This document shows positions 21,404 to 57,153 of a stretch of 64,000 nt of DNA, piece after piece. Positions within the stretch are counted from its first letter, which is position 1. Every line of letters begins with the position of its first letter. Under the pieces are notes generated by a model. The model made no database searches, was not told where the DNA came from, and saw only the letters and a list, made by a program, of their open reading frames with translations. Position numbers and translations under genes: made by a program. Source of the stretch: a virus; the IMG/VR virus record IMGVR_UViG_3300031933_000215, positions 1 through 64,000 of that record. One strand, given 5' to 3'.

Positions 21404-21742
21404 CGACTCAGGAAAAAATACGCGCGGGTTATAACCTATGTGGAGTTAGCAACTTCATAGCCATGGGTATTCTCGCAGTTGTCGTAAAATCCTTGCAGTC
21501 TCCGGGTGCTGTAAGGTAACTCTTCGTGGGTTCTCTCTCTCCCTTAGCCCGGCTTCGAATTCAATACTGCCTGGGGTTCGCCCCGGGCTTTATTCCGTCA
21601 CCCTGCAAATCGAAAAGGACAACACCCATGGAAAACATCTTGGTCAATAGCAAAGATTCACTCTCCGCCTCAGAACTATGAGGCTAATCCTGTGGTGGCG
21701 ACAACCCACCCATAACCCAAAGCAACTCTAAGGAGTATACCC
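21404..21742 (+). other. Leader region before the tubulin-like gene
   Basis: This 339-base gap contains a strong terminator (21569-21588) and a 17-codon reading frame at 21628-21681, which has an AAAGGAC site and begins MENILVNSK. A perfect stem GCCTCA/TGAGGC overlaps its end (about 21667-21684), and a second stem of GGTGG/CCACC type follows near 21693-21710. The layout recalls a leader peptide with hairpins, but there is no direct evidence of regulation. A clear ribosome site AAGGAG sits at 21730-21735. Confidence 0.45.
21569..21595 (+). terminator. Rho-independent terminator
   Basis: GCCTGGGG TTCG CCCCGGGC (21569-21588), 8 bp with one G-T pair and a UUCG loop, is followed by TTTATTCCGTC. 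It separates the small zinc-finger gene from the tubulin-like region. Confidence 0.85.
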
Positions 21743-21772
21743 ATGACTGTTAAAACACGACTCTACGCATGG
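21743..21772 (+). other. Apparent orphan start of the tubulin-like gene
   Basis: The best ribosome site here (AAGGAG at 21730-21735) points to the ATG at 21743. It begins MTVKTRLYAW, which fits the first beta strand of a tubulin-like protein, but this frame closes at 21880. The tubulin-like homology continues in the next frame from 21769. The glycine-rich GTP-binding loop expected in between is absent. Confidence 0.55.
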
Positions 21773-22623
21773 TCGATACCAGTCAATCCAACCGCACCGA
21801 AGCCCTGGATCAGGACCTGTGCTATTTCATCGAAGAGCTGGACGGCTCTGGTAAGAACCGTAAAGAAAACTACTCGGTGATTGCCAAGGAAGTGGAAAAC
21901 ATCCTGGCGCGTTACCAGCCGGGCGATTTCAACATCGTTCTGTTCTCCATGGCCGGTGGCTCTGGCTCGGTGATCGGTCCTCTGGTGATCAAGGCTCTGC
22001 TGGAAGCGGGTGAAACCGCCGTGGCGGTTCTGGTCGGCTCTGACGACAGTGCCATCTCGGTGACCAACACCATCAACACCCTGAAGTCTCTGGAATCGGT
22101 TTCAGTGATGGTGGGTCAGCCGGTGGTAACCGTGTACCACGAAAACACCGCCGGTGTTCCGCGTAAGGTGATCGACGACGAAGTCGAGTTCGTCCTGCAT
22201 GCCCTGACCGAACTGACCAGTCAGAACAACCGGGAGCTGGATACGCAAGATCTGACCAACTGGGTACAGTACCACAAGGTCTGCCCGGTACGTCCGCAAC
22301 TGTCAGCCCTGTCGGTGTTCGATAACCGTCAGGAAGCGGCCAAGCAGATCGAGCCGATCTCGGTGGCGTCCCTGTACGCCGACCCGGACAAGGACAACCC
22401 ATTCGGCAGCCCGCACTACGCGACCGTGGGCTACCCGCGTGAGGGTACCATGCAACTGTCCGATCAGCTGCACTTCGTGATCAACACCGCCGACATCGAA
22501 GAAACCTTCAATCACCTGACCGAACGTCAGAGCGAACTGAACAAAGCGTACAGCTCGTACCGCCAGCGTAAAGCCGTGGTGGATGTGGACGACGATGTTA
22601 CCGGCGATGGCATGATCCTGTAA
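21769..22623 (+). CDS. phuZ: Tubulin/FtsZ-like protein, PhuZ homologue, N-terminus missing
   Basis: 284 aa as read from the ATG at 21769. SMAGGSGSVIGP (61-72) matches the tubulin/FtsZ T4 loop that binds the GTP phosphates, preceded by the strand FNIVLF. An acidic tail, DVDDDVTGDG, ends the protein, as in PhuZ, whose tail is needed for filament assembly. PhuZ makes the spindle that centres the phage nucleus; phiKZ gp39 sits in the same relative position. The protein starts at DTSQSN, which would be the second strand, so roughly 30 residues with the first GTP-binding loop are lacking. The start at 21769 has no ribosome site. Either the gene is damaged, the sequence has a local deletion, or the product is a divergent, truncated form. 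Confidence 0.72.
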   Translation: MVDTSQSNRTEALDQDLCYFIEELDGSGKNRKENYSVIAKEVENILARYQPGDFNIVLFSMAGGSGSVIGPLVIKALLEAGETAVAVLVGSDDSAISVTNTINTLKSLESVSVMVGQPVVTVYHENTAGVPRKVIDDEVEFVLHALTELTSQNNRELDTQDLTNWVQYHKVCPVRPQLSALSVFDNRQEAAKQIEPISVASLYADPDKDNPFGSPHYATVGYPREGTMQLSDQLHFVINTADIEETFNHLTERQSELNKAYSSYRQRKAVVDVDDDVTGDGMIL

Positions 22624-23325: not shown

Positions 23326-24333
23326 ATGTTTTATAGCACTGAGTTTAAACGTAATGAAAAACAATGGTTAGTTTTTATAATACTCCATATAAAAACTAAC
23401 TTTAAATATATTGGATATACAAACAGCCCTAAGAGAACACTGATTAATTTTTATTATAAACTAAAACGCGGAACTCACACTAACAAACATATACAAAATG
23501 CATATATGGACGACCCTAGATTGGAGAGAATTTATTTTGGGGTCGATTCTGAAATAGAAGCTATAAAATTAAAATCAATGCTAATTCAACGATACGCTAA
23601 ACGTGGTGAACTTTTTAACATTGATAAGTTAAATAACCACAAAGACAATGACCCTAGGGTTGACATTATTGTAGACAAGGTTGAAATGGACGATAGTGTT
23701 AAATTACCTCCAATGGACAAAAGGAGGTATGAAAGATTTATAGAGTTGCGTTCGAAACCATTCGACACCTTAGCAACCCCGAGTGGTTTACATGTACTGA
23801 CAAATACTGACATACATGCAAAAAGTAGAGTCGTGGGTGTGTATGTCATATACCACCCCAAAACAGGGAAGTATTATGTTGGTAGTACATCTAACCTTTA
23901 TTCAAGAATTGTAGCTCACCTTTCGGGATTAAGAAAAAACAATCACGAAAATAGTTCTCTTAACTTGGCTTTTAAGTCTGATCCGCAGATTGAAATTATT
24001 TGTTATAAGACTGATGACCGAGAGAAAGCATTTGAGTTAGAGCAGGACTTGATGGATAGTAATAAACATAATTTATTCAATAAAGCGTTAGACTCTAAGA
24101 ATAACTTCCACGGTTATATTTACAAGGGAAAACCAATGCCTGACTGGATACGCGAAAAAATTAGCAATTCGAGTAGAATACGTACCGATTTAAAACGAAC
24201 TCCAATTAATATTGATGGTGTTGTTTATTCATCAGTTAGTGAAGCTAGTAGACAGCTCGGTATCAATAAACGAACACTTTTCAGAAGAATACATTCTAAA
24301 ACACATCACAACTACACCCTGCATGTTAATTAA
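23326..24333 (+). CDS. Tandem GIY-YIG homing endonuclease with NUMOD1-like tail
   Basis: 335 aa, free-standing. The second GIY-YIG domain starts VYVIYHPKTGKYYVGSTSN with a following SRIVAH, residues about 166-195. An earlier copy (about 15-40) reads FIILHIKTNFKYIGYTN, matching the same plan but lacking the first Gly-Ile-Tyr. The C-terminus (INIDGVVYSSVSEASRQLG plus a helix) resembles the NUMOD1 DNA-binding module of homing endonucleases. The base composition is strikingly AT-rich beside GC-rich neighbours, a sign of transfer. It acts as a mobile gene that cuts related DNA lacking it. Promoter-like and terminator sites frame it. Confidence 0.85.
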   Translation: MFYSTEFKRNEKQWLVFIILHIKTNFKYIGYTNSPKRTLINFYYKLKRGTHTNKHIQNAYMDDPRLERIYFGVDSEIEAIKLKSMLIQRYAKRGELFNIDKLNNHKDNDPRVDIIVDKVEMDDSVKLPPMDKRRYERFIELRSKPFDTLATPSGLHVLTNTDIHAKSRVVGVYVIYHPKTGKYYVGSTSNLYSRIVAHLSGLRKNNHENSSLNLAFKSDPQIEIICYKTDDREKAFELEQDLMDSNKHNLFNKALDSKNNFHGYIYKGKPMPDWIREKISNSSRIRTDLKRTPINIDGVVYSSVSEASRQLGINKRTLFRRIHSKTHHNYTLHVN

Positions 24334-34507: not shown

Positions 34508-36403
34508 ATGGCTATTCATGACGAAAACGAAAAGCAACCGAACAACACTCAGCAGCCGAAGTCCGGTGCTGAGCAACGTACCGCTCAGAACCCGTACGCC
34601 AACCAGCAAACCGCCGGTGGCGCTGCACCCCAGGGAGGCCGCATGGGCATGGGCAGCCTGAACCAACACCTGCGTCGTTCCGGCTCTTACGATCGCAGCG
34701 AGTCCCGCTCTTCTGAGGCCCTGCGCGGTCTGCAGGAAACCCGTCGTGTACTCCTGGAGTCCCAAGCTCTGCAGGACGACTTTGAGCTGATCCGCTTCGA
34801 CCGCGATGCCAACCGCGTTGGCCTGCCGGCCATCCTGGCGACCAAATCCATCAAGCAGCAAGGTCAGGTGTACACCGTGGTTCGTACGCTGCTGCTGGAA
34901 GCTGAAGGCATCCGCCTGCAACCGCGCATCGAGCAGAACGGCATCCAGCGGATCGAGATCCCGACCCGTGCCCAGGACGTGTTCAACGATGTGTACTGGA
35001 ACCGGATCACCGATTTCCTGCGTCGTGCGAAAGGCGTCCAGGACATGACCGTGGTCGATGCTGGTCCGCTGGTGGTACCGGCCGACTTCGATTTCAAGGA
35101 CGACATGGATGTTTCCCGCATCCTGATCTCTTCTGTCAACCGTTGCGATGACATCATCGCTCGTCTGATGGGCGAAGATCCGTTCTCCATCGAGCTGTTC
35201 AAGCGTCAGGAAGAGCGTCTGACTGCGCGAATCGACTTCACTGGTGAGCAGGTCCACAACGTGGTCGGTCACCCGGTCCGTAGCGACGTGGTTGTTACCA
35301 TGAACCGCGCCGTGGCCAACGTTTCCCAGGAAGAAGATTTCTACGAGCGTGAAACCTCGTTCAACAGCGTGGCAGGCTTCATCAACCTGGAATACGCACC
35401 GGCGCCGCAGCAGCAGCAAGTGGCCTGGGGTCAGCAGCAGCCCGAAACCCAACTGTTCACTCCGAGCTTCGTCATCACTGACGTGTCTCAGGCGGACTGG
35501 ATTCAGGCACAGACTCCCGAGCTGTACCTGCTGGCGATCTCCAACGCTTACCGCGTAACTGCTGGTACTGCGTGGGTTCGTAGCTTCCTGCCACAGGTTG
35601 GTAAGGAAGGTGTGGACACTCGTGACATCGGCGCGCTGGGCTACATGACTCAGGCCGGTCAGAAGATCGAAACCAAGTCCGATAGCTTCACCGACGAGGA
35701 CTTCGTGAAACTGATGACCGCTCTGGTTCGTCCGAACCCGTCGTTCCTGATGGACGTCGACCCGGTTGGTGATCACGCTGCCATCGAGAACTACTTCGTG
35801 GACGCAGCTTTCGAAGGTCCTAACCAGCAGAAGGCGAACCAGAAGCTGATCCAGGCAGCCGACAACCTGACCGGTGGTCGTTTCTCCACTCACTTCAACG
35901 CGCGGGAAAACGCTCTGGTGATCCCGTACGGCCAGGAAGTGCACACCGGTTACTACATCGGTGAAGACGGTGAGAAGCGGGACATCCGCGATCTGGACGT
36001 TCTGGCCATGCTGAACCTGACCAAGGGCAACGTGTCCGACTTCATGGAATGGTACCGCACCCTGTGCGATAACACCATGCCTCCGGGCGTACGTCTGCAG
36101 CAGCGTGAGCGTTACGAACGTCAGTTCCTGGACAAGGGCCTGAAGATCACTGGTCGTGCAATTCGCCTGCTGCTGACCCCGGCGGCCATCGAGGCGCTGG
36201 ATGCAGCAACTCGCGAAGCAGGTCTGCACGTGGACATGGAAAACGTTACCAGCGTCATGGGCGCTCAGCGTTTCGTGGGCAACACCATGATCAACCAGTA
36301 CACAGTAAGCCGCAACGCCAACATGGGTTACGGTCAAGCCAACAACGGTCCGGCCTCCGGTCCGGCTCACGTTGGTGTGACTTCCAGCGGCCGCATGTAC
36401 TGA
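34508..36403 (+). CDS. chmA: Chimallin, major phage nucleus shell protein
   Basis: 631 aa from the ATG at 34508, after AAAAGGAG. The length equals that I recall for 201phi2-1 gp105, the type chimallin. The gene directly precedes the beta-prime N-terminal fragment, as phiKZ gp54 precedes gp55. Codon use is extremely biased (CTG, CGT, GGT), fitting a very abundant protein. The N-terminal 60 residues are Gln/Asn/Pro/Gly-rich and probably flexible; the ends of chimallin are known to link subunits in the shell. ChmA forms the closed lattice that encloses phage DNA and excludes host nucleases. Identification is by synteny, length and expression pattern, not by a motif. Confidence 0.78.
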   Translation: MAIHDENEKQPNNTQQPKSGAEQRTAQNPYANQQTAGGAAPQGGRMGMGSLNQHLRRSGSYDRSESRSSEALRGLQETRRVLLESQALQDDFELIRFDRDANRVGLPAILATKSIKQQGQVYTVVRTLLLEAEGIRLQPRIEQNGIQRIEIPTRAQDVFNDVYWNRITDFLRRAKGVQDMTVVDAGPLVVPADFDFKDDMDVSRILISSVNRCDDIIARLMGEDPFSIELFKRQEERLTARIDFTGEQVHNVVGHPVRSDVVVTMNRAVANVSQEEDFYERETSFNSVAGFINLEYAPAPQQQQVAWGQQQPETQLFTPSFVITDVSQADWIQAQTPELYLLAISNAYRVTAGTAWVRSFLPQVGKEGVDTRDIGALGYMTQAGQKIETKSDSFTDEDFVKLMTALVRPNPSFLMDVDPVGDHAAIENYFVDAAFEGPNQQKANQKLIQAADNLTGGRFSTHFNARENALVIPYGQEVHTGYYIGEDGEKRDIRDLDVLAMLNLTKGNVSDFMEWYRTLCDNTMPPGVRLQQRERYERQFLDKGLKITGRAIRLLLTPAAIEALDAATREAGLHVDMENVTSVMGAQRFVGNTMINQYTVSRNANMGYGQANNGPASGPAHVGVTSSGRMY

Positions 36404-50242: not shown

Positions 50243-50287
50243 TAATTTGTGAGGGTTCATCTATCTCCAGCAATATTAGGAGGTAAG

Positions 50288-51241
50288 ATGAAAAAGAGTA
50301 AAGAGTTTAGACGCATTCCCGGATATGATCAATACGCTGTCAGTAAAGACGGTGTGGTGAAGTCCGTGGTTAGAGATATTGTACTCAGCCAATACCTTTT
50401 AGATGGGTATTTGATTGTAGACACGTTCCGTGGATCAAAAACGGAAACCCTACCTGTCCATAGAGCCGTTGCGTTGGCATGGGTTGAAAACCCAAACCCT
50501 GAGAAGTTTACAGTGGTCAACCACAAAGACGGCGATCGGACAAACAATTGGTACGAGAACCTTGAGTGGACTGACTACTCAGGGAACAACTACCACGCCA
50601 TTAATAGTGGTCTGCGCAACGACAACATTCCTTGTCGCATCCGGGATTTCGAAACCGGCGAGATAACGGAATTCAGTTCTATGGCACAGGCAGCAGTGGC
50701 GATGGGTTTACGGGCATGTGAACCGTACAGTATCTTAAGACCAAAGATGTTCGGGAAGTTAGTTGCCGATAAATACGAGCTTCGGTTTAAAGACGAACCA
50801 ACACCCTGGTTCTACGAAAATCGAACCGAGCGAGTTAAGCCTTCACGTTACATGGTTATTGTAACGGAAGAGGACGGTAGCAGTCGGGAAATCTTCTCGA
50901 CGCGTGCTCTCCTTAAAGAGTATCAACTCTACGACAGCCCAATGAAATCAATCCCGGAGCTGGCGAAGTTTGGGAATCAGAAATACCCAAACAAAGAGTT
51001 CAAGGTACTTGACAGTTACTCCGGGGATCTTTACCGGGTTACGCGTCAAACCAAAGAGAGCCGTAAGCTACCTGTCCTGGCACGTAATCCAGATGGGGAT
51101 ATGCATTTCGACTCTTTGACTCAATGTGCCAAACACTTCGGTGTTGATCGTTCCGTCATTCACAATCGACTTGATAAGCAAATAGATTTGGATGGATGGA
51201 CCTTCACAAGAAATATTGCCCCTTCAGTCCTTGATGGCTGA
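50288..51241 (+). CDS. HNH homing endonuclease with NUMOD4 (intron-encoded)
   Basis: 317 aa from the ATG at 50288, after AGGAGG. The N-terminus (EFRRIPGYDQYAVSKDG) is the NUMOD4 DNA-binding motif. The HNH core reads VHRAVALAWVENP then VVNHKDGDRTNNWYENLEW, the His-Asn-His metal-binding catalytic finger. The C-terminal half repeats NUMOD-like DNA-binding segments (MHFDSLTQCAKHFGVDRSV). It cuts intron-less copies of the beta gene to drive spread of the intron. It equals phiKZ gp72 in place and type. Confidence 0.92.
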   Translation: MKKSKEFRRIPGYDQYAVSKDGVVKSVVRDIVLSQYLLDGYLIVDTFRGSKTETLPVHRAVALAWVENPNPEKFTVVNHKDGDRTNNWYENLEWTDYSGNNYHAINSGLRNDNIPCRIRDFETGEITEFSSMAQAAVAMGLRACEPYSILRPKMFGKLVADKYELRFKDEPTPWFYENRTERVKPSRYMVIVTEEDGSSREIFSTRALLKEYQLYDSPMKSIPELAKFGNQKYPNKEFKVLDSYSGDLYRVTRQTKESRKLPVLARNPDGDMHFDSLTQCAKHFGVDRSVIHNRLDKQIDLDGWTFTRNIAPSVLDG

Positions 51242-51584
51242 AGGAGTCTCCTTTAACTGACGGGAACGCCCTGAGAGCCTCATACACCAACTACATCGGT
51301 GGAAACACATGTAGGGCCAGTCTAATCAGCTGGACGGTAAAAGAGATGAGGATTGGGTGATCCGCAGCCAAGCTCCTACGGATCGCTGTGAAGCGAGCTA
51401 CGGAGAAGGTTCAACGACTAACCGTTCACCACGGTGTACCCGCCAAGCGGCGTCGGCTAATTACCGGTTAATAGGGAAATGGGGAGCCTCTCATTGAGGG
51501 GAAGATATAGTCTGGTCCTTGGGGAAACTCAAGGCGGGTGTCATTGCACACCGGGTACAAGTAGCGATTGTACTGGACAAAACG
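51242..51584 (+). ncRNA. Group I intron catalytic core (3' part)
   Basis: The 343 bases after the endonuclease stop contain no gene. They hold complementary stretches (CAGCTGGACGG and similar, GAAGGTTCAACGACTAACC, ACCGCGGCGT-type stems, GCCTCTCATTGAGGGG) ending in AGATATAGTCTGG, which fits the P3-P9 domain of a group IA-type intron. The full fold needs modelling. Confidence 0.7.
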
Positions 51585-54586: not shown

Positions 54587-57153
54587 TGAAATCATTACTG
54601 ACGCTCGACGTTTATTCTCACGGGGTCCGCATCAGTGGATACACCCGTGAGACCTTTCGTATCATTGCTGTTTTTTTGGAACGACTGGCGCTAAAAGAAC
54701 CACGCCACATTCCACAGGAACGGCGAATGGTCATGGAACTGAAGAAACGGTTCTACGGCCTAACCGATTCCCGCAAGGAATCTTTCATCCACCGCTACCA
54801 GCTTGAAGAGTTTCTGCTCTACTTGAAAGACCGTGGATTGGAAGGGCGATTTGAGATCAACCATATCGACGCCCCGGTACCCACCCCAGCCACGTTTGAT
54901 ATTTACGATCACTATGAAACCCGTGGATACCAGATTCCCATCGTTGAGTTCATGACCACCCCCGATAAGCGCTCTTGCCGCCTGGACCTCCAGACCGGCA
55001 AGGGGAAGGCCGAGACACTCTATTCTCGAATTAAAGTGCCTGGTGGTTGGTCTACAATGGGTGAGATGGAGGTTGGTACGAAAGTCACAGCATGGGATGG
55101 AACCACCACCCATGTAACGGGAGTATACCCACAGGGAACCACTCCCGTTTATAGGGTAACGTTTTGGGACGGACGTCATGTTGATGTTTGTCCTGAGCAT
55201 CTCTGGAAAGCGTTCTATGTGAACACTGTACCCCATAGACGGTGGCGGGTTATTGATACCTTGGAACTCAAAAGACTAAGTGAAATGCCCAATCCACGGG
55301 TATATGTTCCTTTGTGTCAATCCGAAGACGGCCCTGAGGTTGATGTCACAATACCGCCATACACACTGGGCGTACTTATTGGAGACGGTAACCTAACCGG
55401 AACCGGTATAAATATATTCAAACCAGATAACGAGCTGTTCGAAAATATTAGGGAGGAATTATTACCGGGTCACGAGTTACGCGACTCTCTAAAGAAGCCG
55501 GGTTTACGTTCCTTGGTAAATGCCAACGGAGGTGAAAACCTATACCGTCGCTACCTCAAAGAAATGGACATTGACGGAACCTATTCTTGGGAAAAATACA
55601 TTCCCCAGAATTACCTCCACGGATCTACGGAACAACGGTGGGCATTACTACAGGGATTGATGGACACAGACGGGACAGTCAACACCAGAGAAACCGGTGG
55701 GGCTGTGTCGTTTAACTCCACCAGTCGTCGTTTGGCGGGGCAAGTTCAATACCTTGTGCGTTCTCTTGGCGGTATTGCCTCAATCAGTGAACGCAATACA
55801 CAATACACATACAACGGAGAAAAATGTCAGGGACGTAAGTCTTACGATGTTAACATCCGTCACCCGAAACAACGAAAACTATTCCGCCTACCACGGAAGT
55901 TAGAACGTATACCTGAAACTAACCAATATTCGGAGGATTTAAAACTCAGAGTTCGTTCGGTTGAATACCTTGGTGAGGAACCAACTCAATGCATTTCAAT
56001 CGATCATCCGGAGCGCCTGTATGTAACCAATGACTTCATTGTGACACACAACACCTATTGCGCCTTACGGTCGGTGGCCACCCTGGGCGTTCGGACGGTG
56101 GTGATGGTGTCGCCCAAATACTTCGGCATTTGGGAAAAAGCCCTGAAAGAAACCTACAAAGACATAGATGGACGTTACTGTACGGTTTCCGGTTCCGCCG
56201 AGTTGCGGGCGTTGATTGAGAAGGGCGTGGAAGGAGACCTGGACTACGATGTGATCATTGTCTCCAACGTAACCTACCGCAGCTACCTGGAATCGTACGA
56301 GCGGTTCGGTGAGGCGATCACCAGCATCGGCTATTTGGTCCCGCCCCCACGGTTTCATGAAGCCTTGGGCGCTGGGGTGCAAATCAACGATGAGTTCCAA
56401 GACGACCCCGGTCTGGTGTTCCGCACGGATGTTTACACGAATGTCAGAAAACAGTTGTACTTGTCCGCCACGCCATTCACTGGGAACGAGTTCGTCACCC
56501 GCATGATCGACGTGATGCTCCCCAAAGAGACGTCCTGTCCCTTGCCGGAATACGACCAGTACATCAATGTGATCGGACTGATGTACCACGACCCGGACGT
56601 TAAACGCAAAGACTACCTGACGCCCTTTAAGAACACCTACAATCACACCCGGTACGAGAAACGCCTGCTCAAAGCCAAGCGTCGATTGGAACGGTACAAG
56701 CGGATGGTGTTCAAGGTCATCAACGGCATTTACATCAAAGACCGGGAACCGGGCCAGAAGCTACTGGTTCTGTGCGCCACGGTGGACTTCATCAAACACC
56801 TGACCAAGGAGTTGAAGCTGAAGTACCCCGACTTGACCATCGGTGAGTTCGTGGCGGGGTCCAACCCCAAGACGCTGCAAACCAACGACATCACGGTGTC
56901 GACCATCAAGTCGGCCGGGACCGGTCAAGACATCATTGACTTAAGAGAAGTACTGCTGCTGCAAGCAACGGATTCCAAGAAGGACAACATCCAAATCCTG
57001 GGCCGTCTGAGACGCATGAAAAACTGGCCAGAACACACACCACGCATGACGTATATGGTGTGTATGGACATCCCACAGCAGATTCGTTACTTCAAAAATA
57101 AGAAGGGTCATTTCGATGGACGCGTCGTGTCCCATCGGGTGATGCGTATCTAG
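54556..57153 (+). CDS. SF2 helicase containing an intein
   Basis: 865 aa precursor from GTG at 54556, with GGAGG upstream; ATG at 54586 is the alternative and lacks a clear site. The helicase halves are Walker A QTGKGK at 146-151 joined after the intein to TYCALRS; motif II INDEFQDD; SAT motif LSATPF; and motif VI QILGRLRRM. The spliced product of 517 aa would unwind DNA or RNA in replication or transcription. Phage nuclear replication is the likely setting. The gene immediately follows the RNA polymerase genes. The intein (55009-56052) must splice out for the Walker A loop to form. Confidence 0.9.
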   Translation: MTAPPLLYPTMKSLLTLDVYSHGVRISGYTRETFRIIAVFLERLALKEPRHIPQERRMVMELKKRFYGLTDSRKESFIHRYQLEEFLLYLKDRGLEGRFEINHIDAPVPTPATFDIYDHYETRGYQIPIVEFMTTPDKRSCRLDLQTGKGKAETLYSRIKVPGGWSTMGEMEVGTKVTAWDGTTTHVTGVYPQGTTPVYRVTFWDGRHVDVCPEHLWKAFYVNTVPHRRWRVIDTLELKRLSEMPNPRVYVPLCQSEDGPEVDVTIPPYTLGVLIGDGNLTGTGINIFKPDNELFENIREELLPGHELRDSLKKPGLRSLVNANGGENLYRRYLKEMDIDGTYSWEKYIPQNYLHGSTEQRWALLQGLMDTDGTVNTRETGGAVSFNSTSRRLAGQVQYLVRSLGGIASISERNTQYTYNGEKCQGRKSYDVNIRHPKQRKLFRLPRKLERIPETNQYSEDLKLRVRSVEYLGEEPTQCISIDHPERLYVTNDFIVTHNTYCALRSVATLGVRTVVMVSPKYFGIWEKALKETYKDIDGRYCTVSGSAELRALIEKGVEGDLDYDVIIVSNVTYRSYLESYERFGEAITSIGYLVPPPRFHEALGAGVQINDEFQDDPGLVFRTDVYTNVRKQLYLSATPFTGNEFVTRMIDVMLPKETSCPLPEYDQYINVIGLMYHDPDVKRKDYLTPFKNTYNHTRYEKRLLKAKRRLERYKRMVFKVINGIYIKDREPGQKLLVLCATVDFIKHLTKELKLKYPDLTIGEFVAGSNPKTLQTNDITVSTIKSAGTGQDIIDLREVLLLQATDSKKDNIQILGRLRRMKNWPEHTPRMTYMVCMDIPQQIRYFKNKKGHFDGRVVSHRVMRI
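55009..56052 (+). mobile_element. Intein with LAGLIDADG endonuclease in the helicase Walker A motif
   Basis: 348 aa intein that starts at an Ala (AETLYSRIKVPGG), contains block B-like DGRHVDVCPEHLWK, two dodecapeptide motifs (YTLGVLIGDG near 118-127 and LLQGLMDTDG near 213-222), and ends YVTNDFIVTHN before the Thr of the next extein. The Ala first residue and Thr at +1 mark the less common class. Insertion is after the Lys of GKGK, so splicing restores the GKT loop. The whole gene would be inactive without splicing. Confidence 0.9.

What the first reader, a model, noticed from the sequence alone, without database searches (positions are those of the whole stretch)
21743..21900. Tubulin-like (PhuZ) gene lacks its N-terminal GTP-binding segment
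The strong ribosome site leads to MTVKTRLYAW, a good first beta strand, but this frame closes at 21880. The rest of the protein (DTSQSN, then AGGSGS) lies in the next frame. About 30 residues with the first glycine-rich loop are missing, and adding them would give the usual PhuZ size of about 315 aa. So a deletion plus frame change seems to sit at 21765-21772. If real, this nucleus-forming phage would have a disabled or unusual spindle.
Basis: partly seen in the sequence, partly recalled or inferred. Interest (0 to 1): 0.75.

Follow-up and report, generated by a model that had tools for sequence, protein, structure and literature searches.

The report
Broken spindle gene in nucleus-forming phage
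In this assembled phage genome the tubulin (PhuZ) gene that normally builds the phage's spindle has lost about 61 bases near its start, which removes part of the GTP-binding site and throws the gene out of frame, so the phage probably makes no working spindle; losing this gene is already known in other phages of this kind.

Summary
A good ribosome site (AAGGAG, 21730-21735) leads to ATG 21743 and MTVKTRLYA, the normal PhuZ first strand. The coding frame then switches at 21769-21771, and the rest of PhuZ (VDTSQSN to 22623) lies in another frame. All 39 IMG/VR homologues carry the first glycine-rich loop (GGxGxN) in frame. The missing piece was not found elsewhere in the 231.8-kb genome.

This is a nucleus-forming phage by gene content: chimallin, the shell protein, is at 34565-36355. 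Best explanation: a recent out-of-frame deletion, perhaps part of a rearranged 5' end, inactivated phuZ. The downstream codons still look constrained, so the event is young or a strain variant. The contig looks closed (55-base identical ends) and no repeat explains an assembly collapse, but reads could not be checked.

Natural loss of PhuZ is published (Asesino clade, Ariel, pTD1), and phiKZ tolerates its deletion. This is one more case, caught at the broken-gene stage. I found no sign of a novel working spindle. Interest is modest.

The parts
21525..21627 (+). 5' leader shared with the phuZ leader of relative G001/L017 (motif CTCTC..AGCCCGGCxTCGAATTC at 21533-21563, stem-loop 21569-21588, then AAAAGGAxCAACACCC)
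21628..21742 (+). 115 nt absent from G001 between leader and phuZ start; begins with a 17-aa ORF (MENILVNSKDSLSASEL, 21628-21681) whose ATG sits where G001 phuZ starts. Origin unknown
   Evidence: no match elsewhere
21730..21735 (+). Shine-Dalgarno AAGGAG for the phuZ start
21743..21769 (+). phuZ start and first strand, MTVKTRLYA; the frame runs on as non-PhuZ sequence and stops at 21880 (45 aa)
21769..21771 (+). deletion junction: about 61 nt (T1 loop GGxGxN, helix H1, start of strand 2) missing relative to L017 and L018, with frame change
21769..22623 (+). rest of phuZ (284-aa ORF, homologous from V2 at 21772): T4 loop AGGSGS, T7 catalytic LDTxDLxNW and C-terminal tail intact
34565..36355 (+). 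chimallin (nuclear shell protein), 39% identical to phiKZ gp054; shows the phage belongs to the nucleus-forming group

Best explanation
phuZ of this nucleus-forming phage is a recently inactivated gene. An out-of-frame deletion of about 61 nt removed the codons for the T1 nucleotide-binding loop, helix H1 and the start of the second strand, perhaps together with or after a rearrangement that put 115 nt between the old leader and the start codon. Ribosomes that start at 21743 make a 45-aa nonsense peptide. No good start exists for the 284-aa remainder, and if made it would lack the loop that holds the nucleotide phosphates, so it should not form a dynamic filament. The phage then probably grows without a PhuZ spindle, with poorer nucleus positioning and capsid delivery, as PhuZ-less and PhuZ-deleted phages do. 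Shown: the break, its size against relatives, the absence of the segment elsewhere, the intact homologues, the chimallin gene. Inferred: no function, the phenotype, and that the deletion is real in the phage.
For: 39 of 39 homologues intact in frame; closest relatives 67-73% identical with 61 nt more at this place; a profile of the N-terminal segment finds it in G001 at E 2e-19 but nothing credible in G000, the only weak hit being the phuZ frame itself at E 0.04; only one PhuZ gene in the genome; no ribosome site before ATG 21769; frame preference flips at the junction. Contig ends share exactly 55 bases, the pattern a circular k=55 assembly leaves, and no 55-mer across the junction repeats; the longest repeat there is 12 nt, so a repeat collapse is unlikely. 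Synonymous-rich divergence (pN/pS 0.34 against L017) and no rate excess against L017 mean the gene was under constraint until recently. Literature: PhuZ is not essential and can be deleted from phiKZ (PMC10299810); natural losses occur (PMC11724907).
Against: No reads, so a minority or chimeric path cannot be excluded. The downstream 284 codons have no stop and are well conserved, which a long-dead gene would not show. The tool may hide near-identical records, so no second strain could be compared.
Confidence: 0.62

Rival explanations
1. The deletion is an assembly or strain-mixing artefact: the virus population has an intact phuZ, and this contig took a minority or chimeric path through the 5' end.
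For: Metagenome-derived contig without reads; the remaining reading frame is well conserved; two unusual changes, 115 extra nt and 61 missing nt, lie within 145 bp of each other.
Against: No repeat of assembler k-mer length at the junction; contig appears closed, with a 55-base end overlap; no comparable frame break turned up among 130 G001 ORFs with a match in this contig: the split hits were repeated related genes or a frame that looks antisense.
Confidence: 0.27
2. A real deletion caused by a homing endonuclease: the GIY-YIG endonuclease 0.7 kb downstream (23326-24333) or a related one cuts in or near phuZ, and faulty repair left the deletion.
For: A GIY-YIG/I-TevI-type endonuclease lies at 23326-24333; relatives G002 and G003 carry one in the same slot downstream of phuZ, and G004 carries one directly upstream of phuZ.
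Against: G002 and G003 have intact phuZ with the endonuclease in place; another gene lies between it and phuZ; cleavage site unknown. This concerns only how the deletion arose.
Confidence: 0.06
3. The truncated gene still works: the remainder is made by internal start or frameshift and acts as a shortened PhuZ, or a passive or dominant-negative partner.
For: The 284-aa ORF is stop-free and conserved; AlphaFold still gives a confident PhuZ-like fold for it (pLDDT 91; best PDB match phiKZ TubZ 3zbq, TM 0.95).
Against: No ribosome site at 21769; the T1 loop is kept in all 39 homologues; a confident model of a truncated protein built with a family alignment says little about folding; no second PhuZ to partner with.
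Confidence: 0.04
4. The missing codons sit elsewhere and are joined in by intron splicing, trans-splicing or an intein.
For: This genome has a group I intron and an intein-like insertion in a helicase-like gene.
Against: No segment resembling the PhuZ N-terminus in six frames of the whole genome; no Rfam intron near phuZ; the gene is short of sequence, not interrupted.
Confidence: 0.01

Closest known systems
PhuZ / phage TubZ of phiKZ, 201phi2-1, PhiPA3 (phrog_4733; PDB 3zbq, 3r4v)
   Same: Full match over V2-L284 (33-43% identity to cultured phages); T4 glycine loop, T7 catalytic loop and acidic tail present; PhuZ C-terminal Pfam domain TubZ_C_2.
   Different: Lacks T1 loop, helix H1 and start of strand 2; frame broken after residue 9.
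PhuZ-less chimalliviruses (Erwinia phage Asesino and its clade; Vibrio phages Ariel and pTD1; PMC11724907)
   Same: Nucleus-forming phage by chimallin content that probably lacks a working PhuZ.
   Different: Those lack the gene altogether; here most of it remains, so the loss looks recent.
IMGVR_UViG_3300035492_000331 (G001, L017; 231,290 bp)
   Same: Closest intact relative: similar genome size, shared leader, PhuZ 73% identical.
   Different: Intact 313-aa PhuZ starting directly after the leader; lacks the downstream endonuclease.

Membership tests
PhuZ phage tubulin | Sequence match to the PhuZ family and its C-terminal domain | tested here: met
   phrog_4733 E 8.5e-94 and TubZ_C_2 E 1e-31
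PhuZ phage tubulin | T1 loop (GGxGxN) after the first strand | tested here: not met
   Missing; present in 39 of 39 homologues and not found elsewhere in the genome
PhuZ phage tubulin | T4 glycine-rich loop and T7 catalytic loop | tested here: met
   AGGSGS and LDTQDLTNW present
PhuZ phage tubulin | One open reading frame from a proper start | tested here: not met
   Frame break at 21769-21771; start at 21743 gives 45 aa
PhuZ phage tubulin | GTP-driven filaments | not testable with these tools
   Needs protein work
Nucleus-forming phages (Chimalliviridae) | Chimallin shell protein | tested here: met
   34565-36355, 39% identity to phiKZ gp054, E 1e-121
PhuZ-less chimalliviruses | No phuZ gene at all | tested here: not met
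   Most of the gene remains

The most novel reading that the evidence does not exclude
A PhuZ remnant without the T1 loop is still made and kept under selection as a non-GTP-binding regulator or anchor in a nucleus-forming phage.
Probability: 0.03. Interest if true: 0.75.

Novelty: new member of a known kind. Interest (0 to 1): 0.3.

Why it matters
Natural loss of the phage spindle has been seen only as complete absence in the papers I read. If the deletion is real, this is a loss caught in progress, in a phage whose near relatives keep the gene, and it shows that spindle loss can start with a small out-of-frame deletion. It supports the view that PhuZ is useful but dispensable. It also warns that gene counts by similarity would score this phage as PhuZ-positive.

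Tried and rejected
Whole-genome six-frame search for the missing GGxGxN segment by motif and by profile with a positive control in G001: not found. Rfam search for an intron at phuZ: none; the only intron is at 51163-51534. Searches for near-identical strains or the junction region in phages, viral and genome collections: none beyond L017-L019; the tools say near records may be left out. A short paper search for 'PhuZ' with 'pseudogene' or 'truncated' and 'frameshift' gave no earlier report of a broken phuZ. AlphaFold of the remainder was confident, but this is not taken as evidence of function, since the alignment forces the family fold.

Full report
What is there. The window is the first 64 kb of a 231,818-base viral contig. 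Its two ends share exactly 55 identical bases, which suggests a closed circle assembled with k=55 (inference). The phage carries chimallin at 34565-36355 (39% identical to phiKZ gp054, E 1e-121), with phiKZ-like DNA polymerase and RNA polymerase subunits nearby, so it belongs with the nucleus-forming phages by gene content.

The phuZ locus. AAGGAG at 21730-21735 precedes ATG 21743, which starts MTVKTRLYA. The duplex with the 16S tail scores -7.4 kcal/mol, close to the relatives' values; the ATG at 21769 scores +0.4. The first frame runs on as non-PhuZ sequence and stops at 21880. The PhuZ body is the 284-aa ORF 21769-22623. It matches phrog_4733 (tubulin PhuZ) at E 8.5e-94, but only from profile position 39, and it keeps the T4 loop AGGSGS, the T7 loop LDTQDLTNW and the acidic tail.

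What is missing. The three closest IMG/VR relatives, L017 (73%), L018 (70%) and L019 (67%), have an in-frame start such as MTVKTRVYA-AGGCGTNLAQRIMSEHLDACF-IDTSESN in L018. The window goes from MTVKTRLYA almost directly to VDTSQSN. The DNA alignment gives a gap of 61 nt against L017 and L018, so about 20-21 residues and one frame step are missing. All 39 IMG/VR homologues carry the loop in frame. In the model of intact L018 the missing stretch holds helix H1 (11-18), with the T1 loop, and the start of strand 2 (26-32). A profile of this N-terminal stretch finds G001's copy at E 2e-19 but no credible second place in G000.

More than a simple deletion. The leader upstream (21525-21627) is shared with G001, including a motif, a stem-loop and the ribosome site, and has the same spacing to a start codon. 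In G001 that start codon is phuZ's own. In the window it opens a 17-aa ORF (21628-21681), and phuZ starts 115 nt later with a second ribosome site. So the 5' end differs from G001 by 115 extra nt and 61 missing nt within about 145 bp. One rearrangement, for example an imprecise exchange with another phage's phuZ 5' end, could explain both, but no donor was found; this is inference.

Age. Between the window and L017, pN/pS over 283 codons is 0.34, and the relative-rate test shows no excess for the window (27 against 28 changes with L018 as outgroup, 23 against 26 with L019). One test, against L018 with L019 as outgroup, gave more changes on the window side (38 against 15), as expected if L018 and L019 are simply each other's closest relatives (75% identity). 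The gene therefore looks constrained until recently. Either the deletion is young, or it is a minor variant that the assembly captured, or the remainder still has a use.

Artefact or real. Nothing in the sequence explains an assembly collapse: no 55-mer across the junction recurs, and the longest repeat across it is 12 nt. The comparison of 130 G001 ORFs with the contig gave no other clear frame break in a real gene; split hits were repeated related genes or one frame that looks antisense, and several gaps are large in-frame inserts of intron or intein type. But reads were not available, and near-identical records may be hidden from the tools.

Function. PhuZ binds GDP/GTP in its N-terminal domain and forms dynamic filaments (PMC3678025; PMC12908238). 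Losing T1 and H1 should abolish nucleotide binding; this rests on knowledge of the tubulin/FtsZ fold and was not tested. PhuZ is not essential: phiKZ without it is viable with mispositioned nuclei (PMC10299810), and the Asesino clade, Ariel and pTD1 lack it (PMC11724907). A phage with this allele would be expected to survive with a less efficient infection.

Verdict. A probable loss-of-function allele of phuZ in a nucleus-forming phage: a correct and careful observation, an expected kind of event, and a modest point of interest as a loss caught in progress.

Noticed in passing
window 23326-24333 (+): GIY-YIG homing endonuclease (335 aa) with I-TevI-type DNA-binding end between a phrog_14072 gene and a DUF7484 gene. 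G002 and G003 have one in the same slot, only about 34% identical while the DUF7484 neighbour is about 80% identical; G001 lacks it; G004 has a GIY-YIG gene directly upstream of phuZ.
   Followed up: partly
window 51163-51534 (+), with ORF 50249-51241: Group I intron (Rfam RF00028, 69.7 bits) with an ORF (50249-51241) overlapping its 5' part that looks like an HNH/NUMOD endonuclease by eye, next to phage genes conserved in G001.
   Followed up: partly
window 55009-56052 (+): Intein-like insertion with LAGLIDADG endonuclease domain in a helicase-like gene, seemingly at the Walker A motif (TGKGK | insert | TYCALR); G001 lacks it.
   Followed up: partly
G000 195481-196868 (L014): About 1.4 kb in-frame insertion in a conserved 862-aa gene that is uninterrupted in G001, perhaps another intron or intein.
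   Followed up: no
window 21525-21681 (+): Leader conserved with G001 that now points at a 17-aa ORF instead of phuZ, followed by further tiny overlapping frames.
   Followed up: partly
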